In this document: positions 40,523 through 63,831 of the stretch, piece after piece | Layout: every line of letters begins with the position of its first letter | Position numbering within the stretch: the first letter of the stretch is position 1 | Source: Streptomyces mirabilis | Lineage (GTDB): Bacteria > Actinomycetota > Actinomycetes > Streptomycetales > Streptomycetaceae | Assembly (NCBI RefSeq): GCF_039503195.1 | Contig: NZ_JBCJKP010000001.1 | Coordinates: 3,906,001 to 3,970,000 of the forward strand | Length of the DNA stretch: 64,000 bases | Direction: 5' to 3' | Position numbers and translations under genes: made by a program | The notes under the pieces: model-generated | What the model saw: the letters and a program-made list of their open reading frames with translations, nothing else | The model's database searches: none | Told to the model about the DNA's origin: nothing

Positions 40523-42013
40523 ATGTGGCTGTTCGGGGAGACGATGCCCCACGTACCAGTGGCAAGACCTGCGCAGACACAGGTCATCCGGGAGCGGCCG
40601 ACCGGGCGCCGCACCGGCAAGCCCGTCTGGTACGCGCCGGCCGCCGTCATCGGCGACGTGACCGGCGCAGCCGTGCCGGTGTATCTGGCCTTCGCGCTGA
40701 CCGGCGGCACGCATGCCGTGGCCTACGCGATAGTGGCGGCCGCAGCATGGCTGCTCGTGCGCGGCGCACGGGACCGCTACGGCGAGCGCCGTCTCGGTGA
40801 GCGCGACAACATCGGCCCCGCGACGCAGGACTGGCTGGTGCTGGTCGGACTGCTCGCGGTGGTGCGGGCGGCGACAGGCGAGGAGTCCCCGTTCCTCCTT
40901 GCACTGGCCGCCCTGGTGCCCTGCGCCCCGACGAGCGCCGTCGTACACAATCTGATCCACCGTCACCTGGTCGCCCGGCGCCGCGACGGCCGGACCGTCC
41001 GCAGGGCCCTGGTGATCGGGGAGGCCGACGCCGTCGACGGTCTGGTGAGCCACCTCGCGAAGCGGACCGACCACGAGTTCGTCGTCGTCGGGGTGTGCCC
41101 GATCGGCGACGAGGACCCGCACACACTGGCCCCGGTCGCCACCCGTATCGGCCGACAGGCACCGCCGCACCCGTCTGCCGACTCCGCCCCGGTACTGGAC
41201 GCGGCCCGGCGGCTCTACGCGGACGTGGTCCTGGTCGTGCCGGGACCGTACATGAACGGAACGCGCCTGCGGAGGCTGTCGTGGGCCCTGCACGGCGAAG
41301 AGTGCCCGCTCGTGGTCGTACCGGGTCTGACCGAGGTCGCCGGGCGCCGGGTGGGCGTCCTCTCCGTGGCCGGGCTCACCATGCTGGCCGTGGCCCCGCC
41401 CCTGAGTCGGGGGGTCGCGACGCTGCTCAAGTCGGTGACGGACCGGCTGGGCGCGGCGCTGCTGATCGTGCTGCTCGCCCCGGTGTTCGTGGCGGTGGCC
41501 CTCGCCGTACGGATGGACTCCCCGGGCCCCGCCGTGCACCGGCAGACGCGCATCGGACGCGACGGAAAACCGTTCACCATGGCCAAGTTCCGCACCATGG
41601 TCGTCGACGCGGAGCGGCTGAGGCATCAGCTGACCGGGACCAACGAGCAGGACGGCCGCATGTTCAAGATCCGCCGTGATCCGCGGATCACCCGCGTCGG
41701 CCGGGTGCTGCGCCGCTCCTCCCTGGACGAACTGCCCCAGCTGTTCAACGTGGTGCGGGGACACATGTCCCTGGTCGGTCCGCGACCGCCGCTGCCCGAC
41801 GAGGCCGCCGGTTACGACGAGGTGGAGCGGCGCCGGCTGGCCGTCAAGCCCGGACTCACCGGCCTGTGGCAGGTCAGCGGCCGCTCCGACCTCTCCTGGG
41901 CCGAGACGGTCGCCCTGGACCTCAGGTACGTGGACAACTGGTCGCCGTCGGGGGACCTCGAGGTGCTGTGCCGGACGGTGGGCGCCGTAGTAGCGGGCAG
42001 AGGCGCCTACTGA
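40523..42013 (+). CDS. Polyprenyl-phosphate glycosyl-1-phosphate transferase (repeat-unit initiating enzyme)
   Basis: The product has 496 residues from ATG 40523 (GGAGG four bases upstream). The N-terminal membrane part (about 40-150) and a Rossmann-like middle domain are followed by the C-terminal catalytic domain. This has a membrane helix (about 310-335), then the signature VHRQTRIGRDGKPF, MAKFRTM, SSLDELPQLFNVVRGHMSLV and LTGLWQVSGRSDL. It transfers a sugar-1-phosphate from a nucleotide sugar to undecaprenyl phosphate at the inner face of the membrane, the first step of the repeat unit later flipped by Wzx. The 200 bp upstream are non-coding. Confidence 0.92.
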   Translation: MWLFGETMPHVPVARPAQTQVIRERPTGRRTGKPVWYAPAAVIGDVTGAAVPVYLAFALTGGTHAVAYAIVAAAAWLLVRGARDRYGERRLGERDNIGPATQDWLVLVGLLAVVRAATGEESPFLLALAALVPCAPTSAVVHNLIHRHLVARRRDGRTVRRALVIGEADAVDGLVSHLAKRTDHEFVVVGVCPIGDEDPHTLAPVATRIGRQAPPHPSADSAPVLDAARRLYADVVLVVPGPYMNGTRLRRLSWALHGEECPLVVVPGLTEVAGRRVGVLSVAGLTMLAVAPPLSRGVATLLKSVTDRLGAALLIVLLAPVFVAVALAVRMDSPGPAVHRQTRIGRDGKPFTMAKFRTMVVDAERLRHQLTGTNEQDGRMFKIRRDPRITRVGRVLRRSSLDELPQLFNVVRGHMSLVGPRPPLPDEAAGYDEVERRRLAVKPGLTGLWQVSGRSDLSWAETVALDLRYVDNWSPSGDLEVLCRTVGAVVAGRGAY

Positions 42014-42108
42014 GCAACTGCCCGCCCCGCCAACACGCCCGACAGCACCGACGACAGCCGCTGATGTCCACCGCATCCACCAGCACCGGCGATCCCCCTG
42101 GAGGGCTC

Positions 42109-43383
42109 ATGCCGCCCGGAACCCCCACCGACCACTCACCCGGGGACCGCTTCGGACCTGACCACCACACCCCGGGGGACCGCCTCAGCTCGCCGCTGGA
42201 GGCCACGGACGTGCTCGCCCTGGCGGACCGGCTCTTCCGGTGGGCCGACGCCCGCGACTGGGCGGGCCCGGACCCGTACGACGGGCTGACCGGCCCGCTG
42301 GGACGGCTGGCCGTGCACCGTGTGCTTCGGCAGGTGCTCCTGCAGACCGTCAAACGCAGCCGGATCGACCTGCGTCCGGTCCTGGGCATTCACCCGCTGC
42401 GCACCGCGACGGCCGCCGGAACCGCGGCCGGCGCCTGCGCCAGGCTCTCGGCCTCCCCCGTGTGGCGGGAGCGCGCCCGCCGACTGGGCCGGTCGTCGGC
42501 CGCCGAGCAGCTGTCCGGGCGCTACGCCGGCCTGTGGCGTTACGAGTTCGACGTGCAGACCCGCTGGGCGTACTACCCCGCCTCCCTCCCGAACCTCGTG
42601 GCCACCACCTTCTGCGCGGACGGCTGTCTGGACACCGGGACGCTCGGCGACGAGTCGGTACGGACCCTCGCTCACGGGCTCCTGGAACACCTCCACAACG
42701 GCGAGTTCTTCACCTACACACCGGCCAGCGACGTCCTCGTCCACAACGCCAACCTCATGGGTGCCGCGCTCGCCGCCCGCCTGGCCCGCACCGGGACGCT
42801 GCCCGGAGGACTGGCGGACCGCCTGGTCGATGCCGCCCGTGGTGCGGTCGAGGTGAGCCTGAACAGTCAGCGCCCCGACGGCTCGTGGCCATACGGACGT
42901 GGCCCGCGACTGGACTGGGTGGACGGCTTCCACACCGGATACGTGCTGCTGCGCCTCGAACGAGCGGGGACGCTGCTCGGCATGGATGTCCGGGTCCCTC
43001 TCGAACGGGGGGCGAACCACTACCTGCGGGACCTGTTCGACGGCCCCCTTCCCCGCTACTTCGCGGGCGGGCGGACCAGACGGGACCCGAACAACGACGC
43101 GACAGCGGTACGAATGGCGGCGTGGGCGGCCGAACGCGGCTTCGCCGCGACCGACTTCGCGTACGCCGTGCTGGCGGCCGTGGTGGACCGCTACCCGGGC
43201 CTCGGCACGGGCACGCCCACAGGTGCCGCCTCGGGCAACCGGCCCCTGTGGGAGTCGCCCCGTTGGAGCGTCGCGCCCCTGCTGGACGCGCTGACCGCCC
43301 TGCACACCGTTCTGCCGGCCCGGGACACGCCGCCCAGTCCGCGTCGGCCGTCGGCCGATCAGCCGAGCGCGCGGACCGTGTAG
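42109..43383 (+). CDS. Alpha/alpha-toroid polysaccharide-locus protein
   Basis: The product has 424 residues from ATG 42109, chosen for GGAGGG just upstream; ATG 42064 lacks a ribosome site. It is soluble and helical, with a typical toroid motif SQRPDGSWPYGRGPRLDWVD followed by FHTGYVLLRLERA, as in terpene-cyclase-like and uronate-processing (alpha/alpha)6 barrels. I recall similar proteins labelled VpsJ in biofilm polysaccharide loci, but this was not tested. It is likely a polysaccharide-modifying enzyme; the reaction is unknown. The stop converges with the AsnB-like gene (overlap of 25 bp). Confidence 0.75.
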   Translation: MPPGTPTDHSPGDRFGPDHHTPGDRLSSPLEATDVLALADRLFRWADARDWAGPDPYDGLTGPLGRLAVHRVLRQVLLQTVKRSRIDLRPVLGIHPLRTATAAGTAAGACARLSASPVWRERARRLGRSSAAEQLSGRYAGLWRYEFDVQTRWAYYPASLPNLVATTFCADGCLDTGTLGDESVRTLAHGLLEHLHNGEFFTYTPASDVLVHNANLMGAALAARLARTGTLPGGLADRLVDAARGAVEVSLNSQRPDGSWPYGRGPRLDWVDGFHTGYVLLRLERAGTLLGMDVRVPLERGANHYLRDLFDGPLPRYFAGGRTRRDPNNDATAVRMAAWAAERGFAATDFAYAVLAAVVDRYPGLGTGTPTGAASGNRPLWESPRWSVAPLLDALTALHTVLPARDTPPSPRRPSADQPSARTV

Positions 43384-47539: not shown

Positions 47540-47755
47540 TTCTTGCCTTTTCGGAAGAGAGACAGGCGCGCGACGCACTGTAGGGAGGGAAATTTACCCG
47601 GCAACCGCGCACTTTCTGGAAAAGGGCCAGCCGGACGAACATCTTCATGCGCAGGAGTGAACATGCCGGGGACGTGTCGGGCATGCGCACAGAAACCCGT
47701 TTCGCTGGTGATCGGCAAGCGTCCACGCCCGGCGCATGCCCGGAAGGAGACCCTG

Positions 47756-49060
47756 GTGAAACGATTGATGGTCGTCTACGGAACCAGACCGGAGGCCATC
47801 AAGATGGCTCCCGTCATCGAGGCGCTCCACCGCTCCCCGCATTTCGAACCGACGGTGACGGTTACCGCCCAGCACCGTGAACTGCTCGACCAGGTCCATT
47901 CCCTTTTCGGTATCCGGCCCGATCACGACCTGGACATTCTGCGTAAGCACCAGACGCTTTCCGACATCACCGTGCGGGTCCTGAACGGCCTTTGTCCGCT
48001 GCTGCGCAGTGAGCGCCCGGACGCGGTGCTGGTCCAGGGGGACACGACCACGGTCTTCGCCGGAGCCCTCGCCGCCTTCTACCACCGGATTCCCATCGTC
48101 CATCTGGAGGCGGGACTGCGCACCGACGACAGGTACGCGCCCTTTCCTGAGGAGATCAACCGTCGGCTGGCAACCCAGCTGGCCACCCTCCATCTGGCGC
48201 CCACCCCCCACGCTCGGGACAACCTGATCCGGGACGGCGTCGCCCCCTCGTCTGTCGTGGTGACCGGGAACACGGTGATCGACGCCCTGCACTGGGCGGT
48301 CGAGCGGAAGGCGCACTATGAGGACCTGGCACTGGCCGATCTGGACGACACGGCCCGCCGGGTCCTGCTGGTGACGGCTCATCGCCGTGAGTCGTGGGGC
48401 AGTGGAATGGAGTCCGTCGGCGGTGCCCTGGCCGATCTGGCCCGCGCCGAGCCCGAGTTGCTCATCGTGTTCCCACTGCATCCCAACCCAGTGGTGCGGG
48501 CGGCGATCCTGCCGCAGGTGGAGCGCATCGAGAACGTACGGCTCACGGAGCCGCTGGCGTACGGCGCATTCGCCCGGCTGATGAACCGCTCGCACCTCAT
48601 CCTGACCGACAGCGGTGGGCTCCAGGAGGAGGGGCCGGGCCTCGGCAAACCGGTACTGGTCATGCGGGACACCACGGAGCGTCCGGAGGCCGTCCAGGCG
48701 GGCACGAGCCGGCTGGTCGGGACCGACCGCGACCACATCGTGAAACAGGTGCGCGAGCTCCTGCACGACCGGGAGGCCTACGCCTCGATGGCGAGGGCGA
48801 TCAACCCGTTCGGCGACGGCCGGGCCGCCGAACGGGTCGTACGGGCGATCGGCCACTGGATGGGGCTGTGCGGACGCCCGGACGAGTTCGGCTCCGCGTC
48901 AGCGCCAGAACCCGCGGGTGTCGAAAACGGCCTTGCCGCGCAGCACGCTCCGCTTGATGCCCCGGAAGGCGTCGTGGTCGACGAGCAGCACGACGACGTC
49001 CGCGTCGCGCACGGCGGTGGCGACGTCGACGAGTTCGACCCTGCCCGTACCAGACAGTGA
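47756..49060 (+). CDS. wecB: UDP-N-acetylglucosamine 2-epimerase (non-hydrolysing), extended C-terminus
   Basis: GTG 47756 has AAGGAGA six bases upstream. Family motifs: VVYGTRPEAIKMAPVI, QHRELLDQV, VQGDTTTVFAGAL, IVHLEAGLRTDDRYAPFPEE, GNTVIDAL, VTAHRRESWG and TDSGGLQEEGP. It interconverts UDP-GlcNAc and UDP-ManNAc; with the WecC next to it this gives UDP-ManNAcA for the polysaccharide. The normal family end is near GLCGRPDEFG (48890). The frame stays open for another ~53 residues, antisense to the 3' end of wecC, giving 434 residues instead of about 380. Confidence 0.93.
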   Translation: MKRLMVVYGTRPEAIKMAPVIEALHRSPHFEPTVTVTAQHRELLDQVHSLFGIRPDHDLDILRKHQTLSDITVRVLNGLCPLLRSERPDAVLVQGDTTTVFAGALAAFYHRIPIVHLEAGLRTDDRYAPFPEEINRRLATQLATLHLAPTPHARDNLIRDGVAPSSVVVTGNTVIDALHWAVERKAHYEDLALADLDDTARRVLLVTAHRRESWGSGMESVGGALADLARAEPELLIVFPLHPNPVVRAAILPQVERIENVRLTEPLAYGAFARLMNRSHLILTDSGGLQEEGPGLGKPVLVMRDTTERPEAVQAGTSRLVGTDRDHIVKQVRELLHDREAYASMARAINPFGDGRAAERVVRAIGHWMGLCGRPDEFGSASAPEPAGVENGLAAQHAPLDAPEGVVVDEQHDDVRVAHGGGDVDEFDPARTRQ

Positions 49061-51518: not shown

Positions 51519-52292
51519 TCACGGTGCCGTGGTCAGTGTCCGCCCGGCAACCTTCGCTGCCACCCGAACGAAACCCTTGGCTGGCGGCCGCCAGATCGGC
51601 CTCGTCAGACGCAGCCAATCCGGCATCTGCCGACTGAGGGCCAACTCGGCTTCGCGTTGCGACTCCGAGCGACTTCGGACCGTCAGTGACCCGGGGTGAT
51701 AGCGGATTTCACCGAGAACTGAGGCGACATAGCGCAACCTTCCATGGGCGGCGAGCCTCCGGTGGAAATCGACATCGAATGCAAGCCGGAAGCTGTTGTC
51801 CAGCCCTCCGACAGCCTCGACCGCTGTGCGCCGGTAAAGGCAACCGGGTTGGAAAACCATGTTGTGCCCCAGGTGCAACAACAGGGAACCCACTCGTCCA
51901 GGGCGCATGGCCTTGAAGGCTTTGCCACCGGCATCGATATACCGCACCTGACCGTATGCCATCGCGGCTTCAGGATAACGCTCGAGGGCACGAAGTGCCG
52001 CGACAATCGAACCCGATGGCAGCCGGTCGTCGTCACCCAGCCAGCCCAGGACGTCGACACTGTCACCGAAATGTCTCCAGCCCGTCATGACAGCGTCCAC
52101 AATCCCAGAACCGTTCTGGGGGATCACGGCGATATGGGGAGATGTTGCTCTCTTCACGTCGATCACCGCACTGGGAGATGATGCGACGACGAGACGGAGT
52201 CCGGCATACTCCTGCCCGGTCAGTGAATTCAGGCACTCCTCCAGCAGCGCAGGGCGCTCACCGAGTGTGGGTACCACCATTCCAACCTGCAT
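51519..52292 (-). CDS. Family 2 glycosyltransferase
   Basis: The product has 257 residues from ATG 52292 (AGGAGG eight bases upstream). GT-A fold: VGMVVPTLGERPALLEECL, then VLGWLGDDDRLPSGSIVAAL with the DDD metal/nucleotide motif, then NMVFQPGCLYRRTAVEAVGG and FDVDFHRRLAAHG. It adds one sugar of the repeat unit at the cytoplasmic membrane face; donor and acceptor are unknown. It is the last gene of a wzx-wzy-GT operon on the minus strand. Confidence 0.88.
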   Translation of the reverse strand: MQVGMVVPTLGERPALLEECLNSLTGQEYAGLRLVVASSPSAVIDVKRATSPHIAVIPQNGSGIVDAVMTGWRHFGDSVDVLGWLGDDDRLPSGSIVAALRALERYPEAAMAYGQVRYIDAGGKAFKAMRPGRVGSLLLHLGHNMVFQPGCLYRRTAVEAVGGLDNSFRLAFDVDFHRRLAAHGRLRYVASVLGEIRYHPGSLTVRSRSESQREAELALSRQMPDWLRLTRPIWRPPAKGFVRVAAKVAGRTLTTAP

Positions 52293-52319
52293 CAGTTTGG
52301 CCTCCTGCTTCACCGAGTT

Positions 52320-53642
52320 TTAGGGAGCGTCGAAGCGGGACCACATCCAAGTCCCGCGATAAAGCACAGCCGCCGTTGCAGCGGTGCCGAGATAGAGACC
52401 CTCGAGCCTGGGCCACGGAGAGAACAAGAGGTCCCAGCCAAGTTGCGCGAACAAGAACGCGAAGAGCAATGCGTACGCCCCGGAACCGCCCTTGACCGCG
52501 GCAACCAGGGCCAGCAGAACGAGCAGGACAGGAAGAAGAATTCCGGGAAGCGCAATGATGCCGGTCTCTGCCCAGAGCTGAAAAAGAACCGAGTGCAGAT
52601 AGAGTCCCCTACCGAAATAGTAGTTCTCTCGGCGCTCGTTGAAATCGACATCCCCGGCACGCAGTTGCCCCAGGAACTCACTCCGAGTCTTGTGACTCAC
52701 GTCGGGTACCAGGCCCCGGCCCATGAGCGGAGACTCCTTGATGATCACATATGATGCGGCAATTTCCGGGCGTGCCCCCAAGAGCACCCCGCCTTCCACC
52801 TGGCTCTGCCCTTCCCATCGATATTGCTGCTCCGCCCCCAACTTTCCACTGGAGGCGAGGTATCCGTAAGTGCTTGCGACGGCAGCAACAAGCGAGATCA
52901 AGCCGACGACGACCAGCAGGGTCCTCTTCCAACTGATCCTTGCTTCACGTCGCCCGGCCAGCATTGCCACCACGCCGGCCAAGCAGACGATCAGAAATTC
53001 TGAGCGGAACCCCAGAAAAAGACTCACCAGTGCCACGGAGATCACCAAGAGAGTGGCGATGGCACGCTTCCGCCGAGCAAGAAGCGCAAAGGCGGCAAGG
53101 ACAGCCACCAGGCTGACCACAGGGCCGTATCCGTATTTCCATGCATCGGCGGTGGGGTGGATTCTCAGCCAAATAAAGATGTTCAATGTCAGTCCGGCGA
53201 CGAACGCGACAACGTACACGCGGACGACAGCGGGCCTGCACTGGAGAGCCCACATTGCACCGCAGAGACTCACAAGAACGGCAAGCGGGCGGGACAGGAC
53301 AAGGACCATGTCATGAGCCGAGTCGCCCACCGCGGCTTCGGTGAAAGTTGCACCGAGTAGCCAGACAAGCAGGATAAGAAGGTTCCAGCGTGCCATTTTC
53401 CAGCGCCACGCAGCGGCGAGGGCGACAGGTGCCATCACCAGCACAACGGCGTGCCCGACGGTTACACCGGCCTGCTGGTAAGGCCCCCATGCATTGCCCA
53501 GGCCGATAGCCGCTGCCACAATCAGGGAGCTGCTGTCCTTGCGTGACGAGCGCAGCGGCTCCGACTCCTTGAGGAGCACCCTCTGTACCCTTGCACCGCC
53601 GTTTCTCGAGCTGGTCAGGGACGACGTCTCCGTGTCATGCAT
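52320..53642 (-). CDS. O-antigen ligase/polymerase-like membrane protein (Wzy)
   Basis: The product has 440 residues from ATG 53642, overlapping the upstream wzx by eight bases. About ten to twelve transmembrane helices are visible. A large extracytoplasmic loop (about 270-350) contains VIIKESPLMGRGLVPDVSH and GLYLHSVLFQLWAETGIIAL, the H-xx-Q/E pattern typical of Wzy/WaaL. It polymerises lipid-linked repeat units outside the membrane. Its neighbour wzx and the initiating transferase complete the Wzx/Wzy pathway. Confidence 0.86.
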   Translation of the reverse strand: MHDTETSSLTSSRNGGARVQRVLLKESEPLRSSRKDSSSLIVAAAIGLGNAWGPYQQAGVTVGHAVVLVMAPVALAAAWRWKMARWNLLILLVWLLGATFTEAAVGDSAHDMVLVLSRPLAVLVSLCGAMWALQCRPAVVRVYVVAFVAGLTLNIFIWLRIHPTADAWKYGYGPVVSLVAVLAAFALLARRKRAIATLLVISVALVSLFLGFRSEFLIVCLAGVVAMLAGRREARISWKRTLLVVVGLISLVAAVASTYGYLASSGKLGAEQQYRWEGQSQVEGGVLLGARPEIAASYVIIKESPLMGRGLVPDVSHKTRSEFLGQLRAGDVDFNERRENYYFGRGLYLHSVLFQLWAETGIIALPGILLPVLLVLLALVAAVKGGSGAYALLFAFLFAQLGWDLLFSPWPRLEGLYLGTAATAAVLYRGTWMWSRFDAP

Positions 53643-55053
53643 GGGACATGGACCTCCGGAAATTGGGGAGGAAAAGGCAGGTCGTGACGGCGATGACCGA
53701 TCCGATGACAGGCCCGCTCGCACCGACATGTCGTGTCAGGACGATCGAGAGCGCGAGATTCACCCCAGCCATGACTCCGGCCCTCTTCGCCTGGAACTTG
53801 AGCCCGGCGGCGTCGGTCAACCACATGCTGCTCGGGTAGGCAGCGGCCTGGACCAGCAGCAGGGCCGCGAAGGCAGCCATGAGACCGACACCGACCTCGA
53901 CCTGACCGTGCAGCATCCATGAGGTGACGGCGGGGCCGAAGAGGATCAGCCCCGCGCCGATGACCGCGCCGCCGACTGCGAAGTACACGGTCAAGCGGGT
54001 GACATCCCGTGGGGACGGTGCCTCCGGGGTATCACGTTGCCGGGCGAAGATGGCCCACAGGGGAAGACCGGTCGTGCTGGCCAGGGCGACGGCGGGTGCG
54101 AACAGGCGCGCACCGGCCGAGTAGGCGGCGACGGCATCAGGGTCGGCCACATGGACGAGGACCAACCGGTCGGTCGCGAAGGCCACGGCCAAGGCGATAT
54201 TGACGGCTGCCATGGGCGCCGCAAGATGCCAGATGCGTGTGGCGGCGTGCCGCTGACCAAGACTTCGCAGCACCAGGCCGAACAAGGGGATACCGAGCGT
54301 GCGCCCGGCCAGCAGCAGGCAGGTCGCGCCCACCAGACACTGCGAAGCGAAGCCCGACGCGATGAAGGCCGTGGGCGGTGCATGCACGGCGCCGGACAGG
54401 CAGATGAGCCCCAACGTGAGCACACTGCCCACCGTCTGGACGATCAGCGAAATATGAGTCCGGTTCAGTGCAATCAACACTGAATTTCCCAGGTTCAGCG
54501 GAAGACTGCATCCGAACAACGTGAACGCGACCGCGACCGATGCCTCAACAGATGGCTGCGACTCGGAACTGAGCAGCGTGCCCCACAGGCCCAGGCAGGC
54601 AGGAACAATGCCCACAAGGGCACTCAGGAGTCCCACGCACGTCAGCGCGCGTGCGCTGGTGATAACCGCGCCCTGCAATTCCCGGTAATGGGCCCCACGT
54701 CCCCTCTCCATGGCCCCCATAATCGCTGCGCCTGTCCCGAGATCACTGAGGGGCAACAGAGATGGCAGTGTGGTGACGAGCGCAAAGAAAGCGAATCCTG
54801 AAGGGCCGAGAGTATCAACCACTGTCCGGGTCGCGACGAGCGTGGAGATCGCGGCGATGGGAAGGTTCGCCGCTTTGACGCCGAACGAGCGACCAGCCGC
54901 ACGCAGGTGAGGAGTGAGGACAGCATGGGGCGTGTGCCGGAAGCTGCTCGCCTCAGGCGCTGACCGAGTTCGATCCGACTGAGTTTCCTTCGGTCCGGGC
55001 GACGGGATCGATGCCTTCTCCTTTGCGGTGTCGGGCTGTCTCCCCTGGATCAC
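53635..55053 (-). CDS. Polysaccharide flippase (Wzx, MATE/MVF superfamily)
   Basis: The product has 472 residues from GTG 55053. The first ~55 residues are polar and cytoplasmic, then about twelve transmembrane helices begin with FGVKAANLPIAAISTLVATR. LSDLGTGAAIMGAME and ATDRLVLVHVADPDAVAAYS are typical of Wzx-type flippases. It moves undecaprenyl-linked repeat units across the membrane. It is the first gene of the operon wzx-wzy-GT2. Confidence 0.86.
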   Translation of the reverse strand: MIQGRQPDTAKEKASIPSPGPKETQSDRTRSAPEASSFRHTPHAVLTPHLRAAGRSFGVKAANLPIAAISTLVATRTVVDTLGPSGFAFFALVTTLPSLLPLSDLGTGAAIMGAMERGRGAHYRELQGAVITSARALTCVGLLSALVGIVPACLGLWGTLLSSESQPSVEASVAVAFTLFGCSLPLNLGNSVLIALNRTHISLIVQTVGSVLTLGLICLSGAVHAPPTAFIASGFASQCLVGATCLLLAGRTLGIPLFGLVLRSLGQRHAATRIWHLAAPMAAVNIALAVAFATDRLVLVHVADPDAVAAYSAGARLFAPAVALASTTGLPLWAIFARQRDTPEAPSPRDVTRLTVYFAVGGAVIGAGLILFGPAVTSWMLHGQVEVGVGLMAAFAALLLVQAAAYPSSMWLTDAAGLKFQAKRAGVMAGVNLALSIVLTRHVGASGPVIGSVIAVTTCLFLPNFRRSMSHA

Positions 55054-55227
55054 GATGCGGCCGGCCTTACTGAACTATGAGAGTGGAAAACCATGTGCGG
55101 ACGTCCCTTCATGGAGAAGCGCGTCGACATGCTACGTCACCGTTGTCGAAAGGTGATGTATGTTCACCCGTGCTGAAAGGAAAAGGAATTCGGACGTATG
55201 ACCGTTTCATCTTGAGGAGTGCGCAGA

Positions 55228-56217
55228 GTGGGACCGACTTCCGTCGACCGTCATGACTTTCCCGCGACCGGGCTACGCGTGGCTGTCCCCGTGTCGCGGG
55301 AACACCCCTCGCACTACGCAGTGAGGGATCTCGTTTCGGAACTTATCAGTCAAGGCGCCGTTGGGAGGCCAATCACGACGCCGCCGCTGATCAGTCGGGC
55401 GATCGCCAAGGCCCAGGTCTCACTCCCCCGTCGATGGCGTCGCCGTCAGGAGCCGGTAATTGTTCCCATGATGGGAGCCCGATTCGATCAGCTCTACGCA
55501 GCCGGCCTCAAGGGAGATGTCGTGCCCTACTGCTGGGACGTGTGGGAACCGTCCTGGCCCTTGTGGGCCCGCCGGCTGCGGGCACTTCGCCCTCCGGCCG
55601 TCTTTGTCACGGCACAGCAGTCGGCCCGATTCCTCGGCGATGCTCTGCCTCAGTCTCAGGTAATCCATCTCCCCGAGGCCACACGGTTGGACCGGCACGA
55701 TTCCGGTACATGCCTGGCGGCAAGGACGGTCGGTGTCCTGGAGCTCGGACGTCGGCATCCGGTTTGGCACAAGGCGGTGACGGAACCTCTGCGGTGCCGT
55801 TCATCCCTTCCCCACTTGTATGAAGCAGGACCAGGCCGACTTGTGTACCCGGATGAGCACGCCCTGCGGCGCGGTCTGTCGCAGGCGATGATCTCCGTCT
55901 GCTTCCCCTCATCGCTCACCCACCCGCAGCGATCGGGAACTGTGGAGACGATGACCCAACGCTACCTGGAAAGCATGGCGTCGGGATGTCTCGTTCTCGG
56001 ACAGGCCCCTCCGGAGCTGGTGTCACTGATGGGATTCAATCCGGTCGTCGAGATCGACTGGCGCGACCCGGTTCAACAAGTGCTGGACATTCTGGCTTCA
56101 CCGAGCAGATGGCAGCCTGCCGTGGACAGAGCACTGAGCCGACTGCAGGAGGTCGGAGACTGGAGTGTACGGGTCCGCGCAGCCCTGGAGAGAATCCGCA
56201 TAATCGGACTTCTGTGA
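55228..56217 (+). CDS. Glycosyltransferase-like protein
   Basis: The product has 329 residues from GTG 55228 (GAGGAG eight bases upstream; GTG 55219 overlaps that site). It is soluble, with an N-terminal VAVPVSREHPSHYAVRDLVSE, then DVVPYCWDVWEPSW. The C-terminal part has ISVCFPSSLTHPQRSGTVETMTQRYLESMASGCLVLG, the GT-B-type donor-site pattern with a conserved Glu and a 'one region of the cell-surface sugar transferases' look. It is assigned to GT1/GT4-like enzymes with moderate certainty. It is transcribed divergently from wzx. Confidence 0.72.
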   Translation: MGPTSVDRHDFPATGLRVAVPVSREHPSHYAVRDLVSELISQGAVGRPITTPPLISRAIAKAQVSLPRRWRRRQEPVIVPMMGARFDQLYAAGLKGDVVPYCWDVWEPSWPLWARRLRALRPPAVFVTAQQSARFLGDALPQSQVIHLPEATRLDRHDSGTCLAARTVGVLELGRRHPVWHKAVTEPLRCRSSLPHLYEAGPGRLVYPDEHALRRGLSQAMISVCFPSSLTHPQRSGTVETMTQRYLESMASGCLVLGQAPPELVSLMGFNPVVEIDWRDPVQQVLDILASPSRWQPAVDRALSRLQEVGDWSVRVRAALERIRIIGLL

Positions 56218-57108: not shown

Positions 57109-58068
57109 ATGAAAGAATTGATCGCCAGCCAACCAGCCTCCGTTCCCGGCACGCTGAAGACCATCCTCATCACCGTGCCGACGACAGGTGGACGGCCCGT
57201 GCGTCCTCTGCTCTACGAGCTCGTCGACCAGGCGCGCGCCGCAGAGAGCGCCGGTGGCCGCACCGTTTCGGTCGTCCTGCTCGACAACTCGGCGGCTGGC
57301 TCGGAGTCGGCCCGCATGGGTGCAGCGGCCTGTGGAGTCGAGTACGTTCGGGTACCGGCTCCCGGTTTCTCCCAGGTCCGCAATGCGGCAATGGATGCGG
57401 CCGGACAGTACGACGCACTGGTCTTCATCGATGACGACGAACGGCCGGCCCCCGGATGGCTCTGCGCGCTGGTGACCAGTGCCGAGGCCAACACCGCCGA
57501 CGTTGTCGTGGGCCCTGTCGTGGTCCGCCTGCCTCCCAACGCGCCTCGCTGGCTCGACGGAGGCCGGCTGATTCGCCAGGTACGGTCCCAGGAAGACGGG
57601 CCGTTGGAAGGGTTCGCCGCATCCGGCAACACCTTGGTGCGCATGTCTACGGTCCGCCGAATGGGCCTGCGCTTCAACTCCGCGTTCGACGTGACCGGCG
57701 GCGAGGACTCGGTCTTCTTTCACGAGCTGACCAAATGCGGAGCAAGGGTCTTCTTCACCCGCGCAGCACTTGTTTTTGAAATCCAAGACCAGGACAGGAT
57801 GACCCTGCAGGGGCTCGTCCGCCGATCCTACGGCAGGGGACGTACCTCAGCCGTCGTGGAGTCCAAGATCATGGATATTCCGATGCACACTCGCGTGATT
57901 CGGAGAGCGGGTAAATTCACTCGGGCGCTCTACTGGATCCTTTCCGGTACGGTACTCTGGCGCCCGATCGACTGCGTGCGGGGCATGCTGGACATTGCCT
58001 TCGTATGCGGCTGGATCACGACGCTCGTCGCTGCTTTGCCCCGCACCGCGATCAGCCGCTGGAAGTGA
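57109..58068 (+). CDS. Family 2 glycosyltransferase
   Basis: The product has 319 residues. GT-A fold: ILITVPTTGGRPVRPLLYEL, then FSQVRNAAMDAAGQYDALVF and IDDDERPAPGWL (DDD), then SGNTLVRMSTVRRMG and GGEDSVFFHELTKCG (ED motif). A hydrophobic C-terminal segment (about 290-312) suggests membrane association. It adds a sugar to the growing repeat unit. Its 3' end overlaps the convergent GT4 gene by 17 bp. Confidence 0.87.
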   Translation: MKELIASQPASVPGTLKTILITVPTTGGRPVRPLLYELVDQARAAESAGGRTVSVVLLDNSAAGSESARMGAAACGVEYVRVPAPGFSQVRNAAMDAAGQYDALVFIDDDERPAPGWLCALVTSAEANTADVVVGPVVVRLPPNAPRWLDGGRLIRQVRSQEDGPLEGFAASGNTLVRMSTVRRMGLRFNSAFDVTGGEDSVFFHELTKCGARVFFTRAALVFEIQDQDRMTLQGLVRRSYGRGRTSAVVESKIMDIPMHTRVIRRAGKFTRALYWILSGTVLWRPIDCVRGMLDIAFVCGWITTLVAALPRTAISRWK

Positions 58069-59275
58069 GAGGAAAGCGTGCCTCAAGCAACCCGGCCACA
58101 CCTTCCGTGAATCGGGCACTCATCCCCTCCACTGTGTACCTGTCGGCATCCGACGCGCAGCCTCCCTTGAGCCGGGTCATCAGCCTGGGGCTGGACAGGG
58201 TCTTCACCACTGCTTCCGCATACTCCTCCGGCCCGCCCTCAACCACCAGGGAGTTACGGCCGTGGTCCAGGTACTCGGCGGACTCCGGGCTGCGATAGGC
58301 CCAGGCGGCCGTCATCACTGGGGTGCGCAGTGCGAACGAATCGACCGCGCAGAGTCCAACCATCCCAGGCATGAGCATGAGCTGCGACGCGGCGCCCAGC
58401 AACGCGCGCCGCTCGTCGTGGACGGGCCCCAGGTACACCACGCCCTCTCCGCGCGCAGCCGACGCCTCGATCAATGACCGGCACTCGCCGTCACCCGCGA
58501 CGAGAAGCTTGAACTCGGGCATTCGCTTGACGATGTGAGCCACGGCTTCCAAGAGAAACGGAATCCGTTTGGTCGTATGAAAGCGCCCGAGGTAGAGCCC
58601 AGTACGTCCGGGTACCAGCCCATGCCGGGAGGAGAACTCGGCGACCTGCTCATCCGTGACCCGCTTCCGGGCCTCCGCCAGAGCTGTGGTGTCCGTGGCA
58701 TTCCGCACCACAGTGATGCGATCGCGCGGAAATCCCTGTGCAGCTACGTGGTCCGCGCCTCCCGCCGTATAGGCGAAGAACCATTTCGCCTGCCGGGTCA
58801 GGACACGCTTCGCTGTCTGCAGCAGAGGTCCCACTTCCTTGTCGCAAGTCCGGCCGTTGCCCCACATTGCCACGGCAGGGCCGGATCCGCCCCGTGCCTG
58901 CCGCCACACCTCCCTGGCGAGCAAGGGGAACGTCTCCAGATTGTGGAGAGCCTGTTCTACGACCACCACGTCCGACCTACGGGGAAGATCTCCGAGCCGC
59001 CTCACATGAACCGGGAACCCGGCGATCCGCCAGGAGTGCTGGACCAGCCGGACGGCGCATTCCAACTCGGCACTTCCCCGATCGCGGTCCTCACCCGCGT
59101 CCGGAGGCGGCGAACTGTGTGCGACAACCAACTCCGCTCCCAGTTGCTTGTGGAGATCAGCTGCGAGTCTGCGGAAGAACGGCACTCGATAGTGCGAAAG
59201 ATACGGTTGCACAATGGTGATTCTCCGCTGATGCACAATCTCACCTCTTCTGCTGGACGGCAGGCTCGCTGCCAT
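58052..59275 (-). CDS. Family 4 glycosyltransferase
   Basis: The product has 407 residues from ATG 59275 (GAGGG upstream). The GT-B fold starts with ITIVQPYLSHYRVPFFRRLA; the C-terminal GT4 domain shows GLYLGRFHTTKRIPFLLEAV, LLVAGDGECRSLIEA and VDSFALRTPVMTAAWAYRSP, where the usual E-x7-E donor motif is partly replaced. It is the last gene of the minus-strand group gmd-colD-colC-GT4, so it is a candidate to transfer the deoxysugar made by those enzymes. That is inferred from position. Confidence 0.86.
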   Translation of the reverse strand: MAASLPSSRRGEIVHQRRITIVQPYLSHYRVPFFRRLAADLHKQLGAELVVAHSSPPPDAGEDRDRGSAELECAVRLVQHSWRIAGFPVHVRRLGDLPRRSDVVVVEQALHNLETFPLLAREVWRQARGGSGPAVAMWGNGRTCDKEVGPLLQTAKRVLTRQAKWFFAYTAGGADHVAAQGFPRDRITVVRNATDTTALAEARKRVTDEQVAEFSSRHGLVPGRTGLYLGRFHTTKRIPFLLEAVAHIVKRMPEFKLLVAGDGECRSLIEASAARGEGVVYLGPVHDERRALLGAASQLMLMPGMVGLCAVDSFALRTPVMTAAWAYRSPESAEYLDHGRNSLVVEGGPEEYAEAVVKTLSSPRLMTRLKGGCASDADRYTVEGMSARFTEGVAGLLEARFPLTSSG

Positions 59276-59297
59276 TAATGCACCCTCATATGCACGC

Positions 59298-60227
59298 TCA
59301 GAACAGATTGTTCAAATACCAGCCGTAGGTGCGCTTCAGTCCTTCATCGAACCCGATGCGATGATGCCAACCGGCCTTGTGCAGCCGAGTGACATCCAGC
59401 AGTTTTCTCGGCATCCCGTCCGGCTTCGCAGGGTCGAACAGCAGTCTTCCTTCGTAGCCCACCAGACTGCGGATATGCTCGGCCAGGTCTCGGATCGAGA
59501 TGTCCTCTCCTGTTCCGACGTTGAGAAATTGCCTGTCCTTATAGCTGCGGAGCAGCCAAACAGCAGCATCGGCCAAGTCGTCCACATACAGGAACTCACG
59601 CCGGCTCGATCCAGTGCCCCAAATGGTGACGTCGGGAGAGCCTGCTCCCTTTGCCTGGTGGATCCTGCGCAGCAGAGCGGGGATCACATGGGACGTCTCG
59701 GGATCGAAGTTGTCGCCTTCCCCATAGACGTTGGTCGGCATACAGGAGATGAAGTTCATCCCGTACTGGGTGTGGATGTACTCGCACAGTTTCATCCCGG
59801 CGATCTTGGCGTAGGCGTAAGCCTCGTTGGTGGGTTCCGGCTTTCCCTCCATGAGGTACTCCTCCCGCATCGGCTGCGGGCACGCGCGGGGGTAGATACA
59901 GGAGCTGCCCAGGAACAGGAACGTCTCCACGCCCGCGTCCTTGGCCGACCAGATGAGGTTGTTCTGAATCTGCAGGTTCTCATGGAGGAACTCGGCGGGA
60001 TGGCTCATGTTGGCCTTGATGCCGCCGACCCGCGCGGCACTGTCAACGATGTAGCGGGGCCGCTCCGTCATGACGAAGTCCCGTACGGCCCGTTGATCCG
60101 TGAGGTCGAGTTCCGCGCGCGTGGCCAAGAGCAGGTTCTCGCATCCCTCGGCGCGCAGCCGCCGGACGATCGCCGCGCCAACCATGCCGGTGTGCCCTGC
60201 CACATAGATCTTTGCTCGCCGCTCCAT
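59298..60227 (-). CDS. GDP-4-keto-deoxymannose 5-epimerase/4-reductase (Fcl or ColC type)
   Basis: The product has 309 residues from ATG 60227 (GTG 60230 is equally possible, AGAGGA upstream). SDR fold: IYVAGHTGMVGAAIVRRL, the catalytic Ser in LGSSCIYPRACPQPM, the YxxxK pair in NEAYAYAKIAGMKLCE, and the Cys/His epimerase residues in NFISCMPTNVYGEGDNFDPE. Fcl makes GDP-L-fucose; ColC catalyses the same epimerisation and reduction on a 3-deoxy substrate to give GDP-L-colitose. The directly upstream ColD-like gene favours ColC. Residues alone do not decide. Confidence 0.85.
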   Translation of the reverse strand: MERRAKIYVAGHTGMVGAAIVRRLRAEGCENLLLATRAELDLTDQRAVRDFVMTERPRYIVDSAARVGGIKANMSHPAEFLHENLQIQNNLIWSAKDAGVETFLFLGSSCIYPRACPQPMREEYLMEGKPEPTNEAYAYAKIAGMKLCEYIHTQYGMNFISCMPTNVYGEGDNFDPETSHVIPALLRRIHQAKGAGSPDVTIWGTGSSRREFLYVDDLADAAVWLLRSYKDRQFLNVGTGEDISIRDLAEHIRSLVGYEGRLLFDPAKPDGMPRKLLDVTRLHKAGWHHRIGFDEGLKRTYGWYLNNLF

Positions 60228-60250
60228 CACGCTTGTCCTCTCGACCCTCC

Positions 60251-61414
60251 TCAGCCGCTCAGCAGGCCACACAGCGTTGTCAGCTCTTCCTCGGTCATCT
60301 CGGGGTTGTTGCCGAAGTAGAAGCCGTTCGTGTGGACGATCCGCGCGTTCGGCTGCTCGGACGTGTCCTGGACGTACTTCCGGTAGAACGGCTGCTGAGG
60401 AACGTCGCCGGCGATCACGGGGCGGATCTCCACGCCCGCCGCCTCGAACTCGGCACGGTACTTCTCGCCCAGCTCCGCGGACCTGCAGACGACCGGCATG
60501 GCGAAGTTGGACACGGAGTCCATGTGTGCCAGGTCGTACTGGTGGAAGTCGTCGTTGCCGGCCATCGCCGCACAGAAGCGGTCGAAGTTGGCCGCGCGCG
60601 CGTCCACGATCTCGTCCCAGTGGCGGATCTGCTGGTTGCCGATGAACCCATTGATCTCGGTGGGCCGGAAGTTGAAGGCGAGATCATGGAACGTGTACCT
60701 GGCGTAGAAGTCGTCCACTCCGGCCTCGGCCCGCAGTCTCCGCTGTGTTGCCGTCGGCAGATTGCGGTCCCAGCCGTGTGCGCGGGAGATGACCAGGTGC
60801 TCGTACAACTCCTTGTCGTCGGTGCACACCATCCCGCCCTCGATGGTCGACAGATGGTGACCTACGAAGAAGGAGAACGTCGAGGCGACGCCGAAATTGC
60901 CGAGCAAGGTGCGATTTGCTTTCGAGCCGAGCGCCTCACAGTTGTCCTCGATCAGGAGGACGCCGCGCTCCTCGCACATGCGCTTCAGTTCCGGAAGGTC
61001 GTCGCAGAACCCCACGACGTTCGTCAGGAACAGCGCCTGGCATCGGGAGATGTGCGCCTCGAAGGTCCTGGGGGAGACGTTCAAGGTGTCCAACTCGCAG
61101 TCGATCGCGACCGGTTCCAGCCCGAGTTGAATCAGCGGCATGACGTTGGTCGGCCAAGTGAGGGCGGAGAAGCCGACACGCACCCCCCGCTGGACCCTCC
61201 CCTGGTTCAACAGGGCCTGGATCAGCAGCAGGTTGGCCGCGCTTCCGTTCGTGACGAAGACGGCATGTGCCCGCTCCTGCTTCTCGGCGAACGCCATCTC
61301 GAACGCGCGGCACTGCTCGCTCATGCTGAGCACGTCCTGGTTGAGGACGAAGTCGGCCAGGGCGCGCTTGGTCTCGGCTTCGTGGTAGAAGCTGGACTTG
61401 ATCAGTTTGATCAT
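60251..61414 (-). CDS. colD: PLP-dependent GDP-4-keto-6-deoxymannose 3-dehydratase (ColD-like), catalytic Lys replaced by His
   Basis: The product has 387 residues from ATG 61414 (AAAGGTGG upstream). DegT/DnrJ/EryC1 fold with NGSAANLLLIQALL and IEDNCEALGSK (PLP Asp). At the position of the PLP-forming Lys (KHITTGEGG in aminotransferases) it has His186 in VGHHLSTIEGGMV. From memory, E. coli ColD reads SHHIATMEGG with His188, and also shares RAHGWTRNLP (here RAHGWDRNLP) and the C-terminal NGLFVGNH (here NGFYFGNN). ColD removes the 3-hydroxyl with PLP and glutamate, not adding an amino group. A perosamine-synthase role is therefore unlikely. Confidence 0.87.
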   Translation of the reverse strand: MIKLIKSSFYHEAETKRALADFVLNQDVLSMSEQCRAFEMAFAEKQERAHAVFVTNGSAANLLLIQALLNQGRVQRGVRVGFSALTWPTNVMPLIQLGLEPVAIDCELDTLNVSPRTFEAHISRCQALFLTNVVGFCDDLPELKRMCEERGVLLIEDNCEALGSKANRTLLGNFGVASTFSFFVGHHLSTIEGGMVCTDDKELYEHLVISRAHGWDRNLPTATQRRLRAEAGVDDFYARYTFHDLAFNFRPTEINGFIGNQQIRHWDEIVDARAANFDRFCAAMAGNDDFHQYDLAHMDSVSNFAMPVVCRSAELGEKYRAEFEAAGVEIRPVIAGDVPQQPFYRKYVQDTSEQPNARIVHTNGFYFGNNPEMTEEELTTLCGLLSG

Positions 61415-61463
61415 GGTGACCACCTTTGCGGGAGGGGATGGCCTCTCCAGCCACCCGAACGGG

Positions 61464-62504
61464 TCAGCGCCGAGCGAGTGGGTGAGTGGGAGGGGGGACG
61501 ACAGGCGCCGTGACTTCGCCCTTCCCCAGGAGTGCCTGGAGTTCCGCGTCGATCATCAGGCCGGCCAACTCGGGTGTGTGCACCCTCGCCTGCCAGCCGA
61601 GAACCCGTGCGGCCTTCGACGTGTCCCCCATCAGGTCGTCGACCTCGGTGGGGCGCAGGTACCTCTCGTCGAAGCGCACGTGGTCGCGCCAGTCGAGGCC
61701 CACATGGGTGAAGCAGTGCTCGACGAAGTCCCGCACGCTGTAACTGGTGCCGGTGGCGATCACGTAGTCGTCCGGGCTGTCCTGCTGCAGCATCAGCCAC
61801 ATGGCCTCGACGTACTCCGCCGCGTATCCCCAGTCACGGCGCGCATCCAGGTTGCCGAGGTACAGGTTGTCCTGGAGCCCGGCTTTGATTCGGGCCGCCG
61901 CCATGGCCACCTTGCGGGTGACGAACGTGGGCCCCCGACGCGGCGACTCGTGGTTGAAGAGGATGCCGTTGACCGCGTAGAGCCCGTATGCCTCACGGTA
62001 GTTGCGTGTGATCCAGTACGCGTAGACCTTCGCCACTCCGTACGGGGAGCGCGGATGGAACGGGGTCCCTTCGTGCTGCGGCGGAGGCGACGCGCCGAAC
62101 ATCTCGGAACTGGACGCCTGGTAGAAGCGACAGGGCAGGCCGGTGTTCCGAATGGCCTCCAGCAGTCGCGTGGCGCCCAGCGCGGTCGTGTCCCCAGTGA
62201 ACAAAGGCTCGTCGAAGGAGACGCGCACATGCGACTGGGCGGCCAGGTGGTACACCTCGTCGGGCTGTACGCGCTCGAGGAGACCGGCGACCCTGCTGCC
62301 GTCCGTGAGATCGCCGTAGTGCAGGAACAGCCGGGCTTCCGGATCGTGCGGATCCTGGTAGAGATGGTCGATGCGACAGGTGGTGAACGTAGAAGCACGC
62401 CGAACGATCCCGTGGACGGTGTAACCCTTCTCCAGGAGTAGTTCGGCGAGGTAAGAGCCGTCCTGGCCGGTGATTCCGGTGATGAGTGCCGTTTTTACTG
62501 TCAC
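61464..62504 (-). CDS. gmd: GDP-mannose 4,6-dehydratase
   Basis: The product has 346 residues from GTG 62504 (AGGAG upstream; the open frame continues without family sequence). SDR motifs: [51 protein letters not shown], the catalytic [10 protein letters not shown] and [12 protein letters not shown] (YxxxK), [16 protein letters not shown] and [16 protein letters not shown]. It converts GDP-mannose to GDP-4-keto-6-deoxymannose, the shared precursor for colitose, fucose and perosamine. It is first of the three deoxysugar genes. GDP-mannose synthesis genes are not in the window. Confidence 0.94.
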
Positions 62505-62532
62505 ACGTACTCCTTGTGGCAAAGAGTTCTGG

Positions 62533-62822
62533 TCAACGAGCATGCGGTGTCAAACGCACCCACAGATGCCAGCCCATTAATTTTCCGCTGCCCAGTCCGT
62601 GAAGAGGCAGCGGTGGGGCGTGCAGGAAGTGCTTCTCGGTGTGCCGGACATCGAAATACGGGAAGTCACGCCGGACGCGCCGTACGTCGTAGACCTGCGA
62701 ATATGGGTTGTGCGGGCCGTCGGTGTTGCGGTGGATGAATTTCGACATGCGCAGATATCGCATGAGCCCGGTCTTGCGCGCGTTGTCCAAGTGCGCGCCA
62801 AGGAGTTCCCCGGTTCGGAGAG
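62533..62822 (-). pseudogene. Out-of-frame 3' remainder of the methyltransferase gene
   Basis: Read in the alternative frame this segment gives about 95 residues ending in [20 protein letters not shown], with good codon bias and no start codon of its own. It belongs to the gene at 62577-63401. If the frame change is real, the enzyme has lost its proper C-terminus. Confidence 0.6.
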
Positions 62823-63401
62823 CGCGCCCAGCCGCTCCAGGGAGTGGGCTGCCAGAAGCGCGGCCCGCCGCAGCAGCCCGATCGAGACGAGGTAGTTGAG
62901 CGACCAGCGGGCGTACAGCATGACCACCAGCTCCCCGCCGGGCTTCAGGACGCGGTGGATCTCCTTCTGGGCCCGCTGGATGTCGGGGACGTGATGGAGG
63001 ACCCCGTGGCTGAAGACGACGTCGAAGGACTCGTCCGGGAGGGGCAGGTCGAGGACACTCGCCTGGTGGAGACCCTCGAAGGGCAGTTCTCGCAGGGCCA
63101 GGCGCATCCCTGTCCGCCGGACCGCCGTCTCCGTCAGGTCCACTCCGGTCCACCGGGCGCCGCGCCGGATCAGCTGCTCCGCCTCGGCTCCCTGACCGAG
63201 ACCGATCTCCAGTACGTGACGCCCTCGGAGGTCCAAGCCGTCCAGGCATCGGGGAATGTGGGGTTCCAGCCGGTACTTGGCTGTGTCGTACCGGTGGAAG
63301 AACGCTTCGTAATCCTGTCTCTCCCTGCCCTCCGGTGCACCCAGGAGCTGATCACCGCACGGATGACTGGACCAGAAACCCTGGATTTCTACTTCCTCCA
63401 C
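62577..63401 (-). CDS. SAM-dependent methyltransferase, apparently frameshifted near its 3' end
   Basis: GTG 63401 (GGGGAG upstream) starts VEEVEIQGFWSSHPCG, a familiar methyltransferase N-terminus. Motif I HVLEIGLGQGAEAEQLI, then VDLTETAVRRTG, FDVVFSHGVLHHVPDI and HRVLKPGGELVVMLY are intact. After SLERLGALS the frame turns into Ser/Thr/Arg-rich nonsense and stops at 62577. A second frame continues with natural sequence (GELLGAHLDNARKTGLMRYL, SQVYDVRRVRRDFPYFDVRH) to a stop at 62533. The break lies at 62818-62822 (GAGAG), where loss of two bases would restore one frame. It heads the gmd-colD-colC group. Confidence 0.75.
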   Translation of the reverse strand: MEEVEIQGFWSSHPCGDQLLGAPEGRERQDYEAFFHRYDTAKYRLEPHIPRCLDGLDLRGRHVLEIGLGQGAEAEQLIRRGARWTGVDLTETAVRRTGMRLALRELPFEGLHQASVLDLPLPDESFDVVFSHGVLHHVPDIQRAQKEIHRVLKPGGELVVMLYARWSLNYLVSIGLLRRAALLAAHSLERLGALSEPGNSLARTWTTRARPGSCDICACRNSSTATPTARTTHIRRSTTYGASGVTSRISMSGTPRSTSCTPHRCLFTDWAAEN

Positions 63402-63831
63402 AGAGCTCCCCAACAGATTAATATATTTTCAATAACAGGGGACCCAGGGGATTCATCCCGGACCCCGTTGTTTTACTCACCGTGCCCAGAGTGACACAGC
63501 GGGAAGACGCTTGGGGGAGGCTCAGCGGAGGGTTACCGACCGCTGATTGCACCCGTGACACCCATTGACTTTCGGGCAGCCTACGACGTGTTGCCCTGGA
63601 CGCCCGGCCTTGTGAATGGTGTCATGCATTCCATTCAGTTTCGTTTGCGCCACCGAAGGGATTCCAAGTACGGTGCGGATTCTTCGTCGGCGTACCCGGA
63701 TCCGCCGTGTACCGCAGCACCATCCTGTTCCGGTACTCACAGACGCGGGCTGTTCCGCCTCCCCGGGCCGGTGCACGCCGAACTCGTGCCCTCGGGTCCT
63801 GGTTCTCCGACACGGTCCGGAGCTCGGCGGA
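63402..63831. other. Leader and intergenic DNA at the outer end of the polysaccharide locus
   Basis: Just upstream of the methyltransferase start lies an AT-rich run (about 63416-63442, with TTGAAAATATATTAAT on the minus strand), a likely promoter for the minus-strand deoxysugar group. A GGGATTCATCCC palindrome is next to it. Beyond, to 63831, I see no gene I can defend on either strand. Confidence 0.4.

What the first reader, a model, noticed from the sequence alone, without database searches (positions are those of the whole stretch)
58052..63401. Colitose (3,6-dideoxy-L-sugar) pathway inside a Streptomyces exopolysaccharide locus
Seen: gmd, a DegT-family enzyme with His186 in place of the PLP Lys, and an Fcl/ColC-type epimerase-reductase are consecutive on one strand. 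Known: in E. coli O55/O111 and related organisms, gmd (ColB), ColD and ColC convert GDP-mannose to GDP-L-colitose, and ColD is distinguished from aminotransferases by that Lys-to-His change. Inferred: this Streptomyces makes GDP-L-colitose or a close 3,6-dideoxy sugar and adds it to an exopolysaccharide, perhaps via the adjacent GT4. I do not recall 3,6-dideoxyhexoses as a described Streptomyces polysaccharide component.
Basis: partly seen in the sequence, partly recalled or inferred. Interest (0 to 1): 0.87.

Follow-up and report, generated by a model that had tools for sequence, protein, structure and literature searches.

The report
Likely colitose pathway in Streptomyces
Three neighbouring genes in this soil bacterium's polysaccharide locus look like a complete route to colitose, a rare sugar best known from the surface of gut bacteria, and the key enzyme belongs to a large untested sister branch of the known colitose enzyme.

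Summary
Window 59298-62543 (- strand) carries gmd, a DegT-family protein with His186 in place of the catalytic Lys, and an Fcl/ColC-type epimerase-reductase, consecutively, inside a polysaccharide locus. The DegT protein groups with ColD (100/98; unions with RfbH or with Lys enzymes rejected, p-AU 0.006, with a long-branch warning), shares residues that set ColD apart from RfbH, and lacks three of the four Cys that RfbH conserves. Yet it is only 31% identical to E. coli ColD and belongs to a large separate clade (Streptomyces, Saccharibacteria and other Patescibacteria, Bacteroidota). The reductase is closer to E. coli Fcl (52%) than to ColC (42%), but falls in a clade of reductases that sit beside these His-DegT genes, apart from ordinary Fcl of two other Streptomyces. 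Best reading: GDP-mannose to GDP-L-colitose in three steps, used in an extracellular polysaccharide. Product, stereochemistry and polymer are inferred; the adjacent GT4 is one of four candidate transferases. Rare in Streptomyces: 1 of 391 other genomes. RfbH-type enzymes, in 31 of 119 genomes of the order, sit in antibiotic trideoxysugar cassettes where neighbours were named. No paper on colitose in a Streptomyces polysaccharide turned up in the open-licence library searched.

The parts
61464..62543 (-). gmd, GDP-mannose 4,6-dehydratase (359 aa as listed; start probably GTG at 62504)
   Evidence: TIGR01472 502.6 bits, above cut-off 415; 55% identical to Gmd of the E. coli O55 colitose cluster; next own-genome match only 54.8 bits
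60251..61414 (-). His186 DegT-family protein: predicted GDP-4-keto-6-deoxymannose 3-dehydratase (ColD sister clade), 387 aa
   Evidence: His at the Lys position, groups with ColD in trees, shares residues that distinguish ColD from RfbH, best PDB fold match ColD
60833..60865 (-). active-site segment VGHHLSTIEGG, residues 184-194, with His186
   Evidence: Coordinates; alignment to ColD His188
59298..60227 (-). Fcl/ColC-type epimerase-reductase: predicted GDP-L-colitose synthase, 309 aa
   Evidence: NCBIfam Fcl 448 bits, below cut-off 500; 52% identical to E. coli Fcl, 42% to ColC; clade of His-DegT-associated reductases; ten Fcl active-site positions kept
58052..59275 (-). GT4 glycosyltransferase, one candidate for transfer of the sugar
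   Evidence: PF13692 62 bits; 83% identical copy in the related genome G101, about 7.5 kb from the three genes there
57109..58068 (+). GT2 glycosyltransferase, convergent neighbour, second candidate
   Evidence: PF00535; 65% identical copy next to the three genes in G101
62577..63413 (-). SAM-dependent methyltransferase, reading frame apparently broken near 62805-62811
   Evidence: PF08241; 289-aa homologue in G101 matches in two frames
53635..55053 (-). Wzx-like flippase (named by eye from position and hydrophobic sequence; no Pfam match)
   Evidence: No Pfam hit; 71% identical homologue in the syntenic G101 locus
52320..53729 (-). Wzy-like polymerase
   Evidence: PF04932 26.5 bits, below cut-off 31.7; 57% identical homologue in G101
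55219..56217 (+). possible glycosyltransferase (by eye; no Pfam match)
   Evidence: No Pfam hit; 71% identical homologue in G101
51519..52313 (-). GT2 glycosyltransferase
   Evidence: PF00535; 69% identical in G101
47543..49060 (+). UDP-GlcNAc 2-epimerase (WecB type)
   Evidence: PF02350 387.5 bits
48899..50140 (-). UDP-sugar dehydrogenase
   Evidence: PF03721, PF00984, PF03720
40523..42013 (+). initiating polyprenyl-phosphate sugar transferase
   Evidence: PF02397 216.8 bits
35320..36906 (-). Wzz/BY-kinase chain-length protein
   Evidence: PF02706 and PF13614

Best explanation
The three genes make GDP-L-colitose (3,6-dideoxy-L-xylo-hexose) from GDP-mannose for an extracellular polysaccharide. 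Gmd oxidises and dehydrates GDP-mannose to GDP-4-keto-6-deoxymannose. The His186 DegT protein, with PMP regenerated by glutamate as in ColD, removes the C3 hydroxyl to give GDP-4-keto-3,6-dideoxymannose. The Fcl-type enzyme then epimerises C5 and reduces C4 with NADPH to give GDP-L-colitose, which one of the locus glycosyltransferases adds to a repeat unit built and exported by the Wzx/Wzy/Wzz-like machinery. Shown by sequence: gene content, order, His186, kinship to ColD and recurrence of the three genes together in several phyla. Inferred: every reaction, the sugar's stereochemistry and its destination.
Against: Only 31% identity to E. coli ColD. The reductase is nearer to E. coli Fcl (52%) than to ColC (42%) and keeps the ten Fcl active-site positions checked, so GDP-fucose as product or co-product is not excluded. 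47 of 80 loci lack an Fcl/ColC-type gene at 250 bits within 1.5 kb and 43 of 80 lack gmd there (some are cut by contig ends), so the clade as a whole may serve other sugars. Several of the shared residues also occur in Lys enzymes (R250 in 9 of 17, H215 in 5, E162 and E329 in 4 each). Relatives 62-67% identical to ColD act on GDP-heptose in C. jejuni (PMC10440746, passages). treekit warned that the ColD and window-clade branches are both long, so their union could be an artefact; the alignment behind the structure model contained four ColD rows. The GDP-mannose supply genes were not pinned down. The initiating transferase and Wzz genes found no match in the G101 stretches read.
Confidence: 0.72

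Rival explanations
1. A 3,6-dideoxyhexose other than colitose: same C3 deoxygenation, but the reductase leaves a different configuration at C4 or C5 (for example ascarylose-like or a D-sugar).
For: The clade pairs elsewhere with SDR proteins much less like Fcl (L027, L029, L058, L085, L092: 137-222 bits on the Fcl model), so product variety within the clade is likely.
Against: In the window the partner is a full Fcl/ColC-type enzyme with the ten Fcl active-site positions kept; Fcl and ColC both give the L-sugar (established knowledge, recalled).
Confidence: 0.12
2. The Gmd-Fcl pair makes GDP-L-fucose for the polysaccharide, and the DegT protein is a side activity, so fucose (alone or with colitose) is the real sugar.
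For: Reductase 52% identical to E. coli Fcl, 448 bits on the Fcl model; Fcl active-site positions intact. Ste7 of the Streptomyces Ebosin cluster is described as a fucosyltransferase (PMC4347597, abstract in search listing).
Against: The reductase falls outside ordinary Fcl, in a His-DegT-associated clade (quick tree, support 91). gmd, DegT and reductase are kept together in G101 and in other phyla. The one column that separated this clade from Fcl under the thresholds used (E. coli Fcl Y150) carries the ColC residue, weak evidence.
Confidence: 0.1
3. The deoxysugar decorates a secondary metabolite rather than a polysaccharide.
For: Streptomyces use 3-dehydratases in antibiotic sugar cassettes.
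Against: The locus holds Wzz/BY-kinase, an initiating sugar transferase, a Wzy-like gene, a presumed Wzx and UDP-sugar enzymes, and none of the 20 window proteins scanned with Pfam matched a polyketide or peptide synthase.
Confidence: 0.05

Closest known systems
GDP-L-colitose pathway of E. coli O55 (gmd, ColD/WbdK, ColC)
   Same: Same three enzyme types; His in place of Lys; shared active-site residues; inside a Wzx/Wzy polysaccharide cluster
   Different: DegT protein 31% identical, separate sister clade; reductase 42% identical to ColC and in another clade; the three genes are consecutive here, while in O55 gmd lies about 10 kb from the other two
RfbH/E1 and SpnQ-type NDP-4-keto-6-deoxyhexose 3-dehydratases
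   Same: DegT fold, His in place of Lys
   Different: Window protein lacks three of the four conserved Cys and lies outside the RfbH clade; no NDP-hexose 2,3-dehydratase among the 20 window proteins scanned
C. jejuni GDP-6-deoxy-4-keto-heptose C3-dehydratases (PMC10440746)
   Same: GDP-sugar C3 dehydration with PLP and glutamate, ColD family
   Different: Those are 62-67% identical to ColD and act on heptose; the window operon has a gmd above the TIGR01472 cut-off; heptose genes were not looked for
GDP-L-fucose synthase Fcl
   Same: Fold, active-site positions, 52% identity of the window reductase to E. coli Fcl
   Different: Window enzyme lies in a clade associated with His-DegT genes, apart from the Fcl of two other Streptomyces

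Membership tests
ColD-type GDP-4-keto-6-deoxymannose 3-dehydratase | DegT fold with His in place of the PLP Lys | tested here: met
ColD-type GDP-4-keto-6-deoxymannose 3-dehydratase | Falls inside the branch of ColD sequences (E. coli, Yersinia and kin) | tested here: not met
   Sister branch, not inside it; 8 ColD rows form their own branch at 100*, 6 of them at 100/100
ColD-type GDP-4-keto-6-deoxymannose 3-dehydratase | No [2Fe-2S] Cys set | tested here: met
   Three of four RfbH-conserved Cys absent; the fourth is also present in ColD
ColD-type GDP-4-keto-6-deoxymannose 3-dehydratase | Turns over GDP-4-keto-6-deoxymannose with glutamate as amino donor | not testable with these tools
   Needs purified enzyme
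RfbH/E1 family | Reaches NCBIfam cut-off (423) and carries four conserved Cys | tested here: not met
   185.8 bits; three Cys missing
DegT sugar aminotransferase | Catalytic Lys | tested here: not met
   His186; Lys in 17 of 17 Lys-group rows
GDP-mannose 4,6-dehydratase (gmd) | TIGR01472 cut-off | tested here: met
   502.6 against 415 bits
GDP-L-fucose synthase (Fcl) | NF047922 cut-off (500 bits) | tested here: not met
   448 bits; the cut-off is strict: of 149 phylum genomes 42 match at 1e-80 and 10 pass it, and the two Streptomyces Fcl score 470-478
ColC GDP-L-colitose synthase | Groups with ColC of E. coli O55 | tested here: not met
   ColC groups with L074, on the other side of the tree (quick tree, midpoint root, only one named ColC in the set)
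ColC GDP-L-colitose synthase | 5-epimerisation and 4-reduction of GDP-4-keto-3,6-dideoxymannose | not testable with these tools
   Needs purified enzyme

The most novel reading that the evidence does not exclude
The window enzyme stands for a third large lineage of nucleotide-sugar 3-dehydratases, sister to ColD, spread over Streptomyces, Saccharibacteria and other Patescibacteria, and Bacteroidota, with different reductase partners in different branches; the GDP-colitose synthase partner arose from Fcl-like ancestors separately from ColC, and some Streptomyces make a 3,6-dideoxyhexose-bearing extracellular polysaccharide.
Probability: 0.5. Interest if true: 0.6.

Novelty: new member of a known kind. 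Interest (0 to 1): 0.47.

Why it matters
If true, a sugar known mainly from Gram-negative surface polysaccharides is also made by a few Streptomyces, and part of a large clade that databases now label CDP-6-deoxy-D-xylo-4-hexulose-3-dehydrase or aminotransferase (names) is misannotated: where gmd is next door it should read GDP-4-keto-6-deoxymannose 3-dehydratase. That would extend the predicted reach of GDP-3,6-dideoxy sugars into Patescibacteria and give three directly assayable enzymes.

Tried and rejected
Considered and rejected: (1) aminotransferase, because of His186 and the tree; (2) RfbH/E1 or SpnQ-type enzyme, because of the missing Cys, the separate clade and no NDP-hexose 2,3-dehydratase among the 20 window proteins scanned; (3) plain Fcl operon of the genus, because the window reductase does not group with the Fcl of G056 and G067; (4) the adjacent GT4 as the demonstrated colitosyltransferase: G101 keeps the GT4 (83%) but about 7.5 kb away beside a gmd remnant, and two GT2 genes and one possible glycosyltransferase gene are shared too.

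Led nowhere: E. coli CpsB found no match in the genome; the tool notes that such an empty answer shows nothing. PF00483 gave 10 matches that were not sorted further. A paper search on the words ColD and ColC was swamped by 'cold' and 'colchicine'. Contig lengths shared between the DegT and reductase hit lists (49 shared values among 120 and 118 typed, of 120 listed in each) suggest that both genes lie on the same contigs, but equal lengths are only indirect evidence. Contexts of RfbH genes were fetched for seven genomes (L146-L152); the RfbH gene was marked in my ORF lists in five of them, and ten neighbours from four of these were named with Pfam. L148 and L149 were not interpreted. The first own-genome text of this report counted His in 80 of 80 aligned rows; the check showed 79 aligned plus L096 read by motif.

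Papers: PMC7725333 section 24 and passages, PMC8987622 passages, PMC12409901 passages, PMC8204192 passages, PMC10440746 passages; others in search listings only (PMC4347597). PMC7725333 speaks of L-colitose as absent from TACK archaea, from which I infer prediction elsewhere; its supplementary tables were not available, so whether it predicts colitose for Streptomyces is not known.
Full report
What is there. On the - strand of 58052-63413 the order of transcription is methyltransferase, gmd, DegT protein, Fcl/ColC-type epimerase-reductase, GT4. The last four are separated by short gaps (49 bases between gmd and the DegT gene, 23 and 22 bases at the next two, with the starts 61414, 60227 and 59275). 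In own-genome protein searches the reductase and gmd have only remote further matches (best 41.8 and 54.8 bits) and the DegT protein has none; the Pfam DegT family has nine further matched stretches in the genome, the best 97.5 bits. The wider locus holds a Wzz/BY-kinase protein, an initiating sugar transferase, UDP-GlcNAc 2-epimerase, a UDP-sugar dehydrogenase, an asparagine-synthase-like amidotransferase and glycosyltransferases. The Wzy match is below Pfam's cut-off, and the Wzx name was given by eye.

The reductase. It is 52% identical to E. coli Fcl and 42% to ColC. A tree of 71 rows (quick, midpoint root) puts it with 17 other reductases that sit within 1.5 kb of His-DegT genes and four database homologues (support 91; 97* without L046), apart from 29 actinobacterial Fcl-family rows, two of them from Streptomyces, and E. 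coli Fcl. Of the 34 reductases beside His-DegT genes, the window's own included, 18 are in the window's clade, 11 in a second clade (mostly Bacteroidota), 3 next to ColC of E. coli (L030, L035, L074), and 2 among ordinary Fcl (L032, L097). The ten Fcl active-site positions checked are kept in the window protein (the choice of positions is recalled), so sequence alone does not tell ColC from Fcl activity.

Association. With a threshold of 250 bits and 1.5 kb, 33 of 80 loci have an Fcl/ColC-type neighbour, 37 of 80 a gmd neighbour, and 19 of 80 both. Some loci are cut by contig ends. Several loci have SDR genes much less like Fcl instead, and in L054, L058, L067, L092, L095 and L097 an RfbH-type gene lies in the same locus. 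The deeper clade therefore probably serves several sugars; the GDP-mannose reading applies to the branch with gmd.

Distribution. At E 1e-60, 2 of 392 Streptomyces genomes including the window's own have the DegT gene, and 2 of 199 relatives, the same two. The other one, G101, has gmd, DegT and reductase consecutive on one strand, and 15 of 23 window genes queried match in the stretches L143-L144; among the eight that do not are the initiating transferase and Wzz genes (the query set and stretches were chosen by me). Of the 120 listed database homologues 8 carry a Streptomyces name, the nearest from S. mirabilis at 97%. S. diastatochromogenes has DegT and reductase adjacent (L020).

RfbH in Streptomyces. 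NF011936 passes its cut-off in 31 of 119 genomes of the order. Named neighbours include NDP-hexose 2,3-dehydratase (L146, L152), a dTDP-sugar epimerase (L146), nucleotidyltransferases (L146, L150) and EryCIII-like glycosyltransferases (L147, L152), which point to antibiotic trideoxysugar cassettes.

Literature. Searches for colitose with Streptomyces (5 papers), with Actinobacteria (4 papers), dideoxyhexose with Streptomyces (11 papers), Patescibacteria-type terms with colitose (438 papers with two of the terms, 10 listed, none of these with colitose), GDP-colitose terms (11 papers), and mixed terms (only the first rows listed) showed no paper that, from its title, the start of its abstract or the passages read, reports colitose in a Streptomyces polysaccharide. 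The library is open-licence only and most listed papers were not opened. PMC10440746 (passages) shows that enzymes 62-67% identical to ColD act on GDP-heptose in C. jejuni, a warning that ColD kinship does not fix the substrate.

Verdict. A conserved, open and probably functional GDP-3,6-dideoxyhexose pathway, most likely colitose, with a ColD-sister enzyme. The product is not shown. Ordinary in chemistry, unusual in host and lineage.

Noticed in passing
window 62533-63413: The methyltransferase upstream of gmd matches a 289-aa homologue of G101 in two frames, changing near 62805-62811: a frameshift or a sequencing error.
   Followed up: partly
L143:1895-2092 (G101): A gmd remnant (66 residues, 80% identical) lies beside the GT4 homologue, about 7 kb from the intact gmd-DegT-reductase set, suggesting rearrangement with duplication.
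   Followed up: partly
L054, L058, L067, L092, L095: In these Patescibacteria loci an RfbH-type 3-dehydratase lies in the same locus as a gene of the window's clade (directly upstream of it in L058), with an SDR gene following the clade gene.
   Followed up: no
L027, L029, L033: gmd follows the His-DegT gene and is itself followed by an SDR much less like Fcl (136.8 and 156.1 bits on the Fcl model for L027 and L029): possibly a different GDP-3,6-dideoxyhexose.
   Followed up: partly
L036:16753-17919: A DegT-family protein with GHQ in place of GHH, a long branch near the window's clade.
   Followed up: no
L111-L140: RfbH-type 3-dehydratases in 31 of 119 Streptomycetales genomes, in antibiotic sugar cassettes where neighbours were named, although the family model is called a lipopolysaccharide protein.
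   Followed up: partly
window 41866-43383: A 505-aa protein without Pfam match, conserved in the polysaccharide loci of G101 (61%) and S. diastatochromogenes (86%).
   Followed up: no
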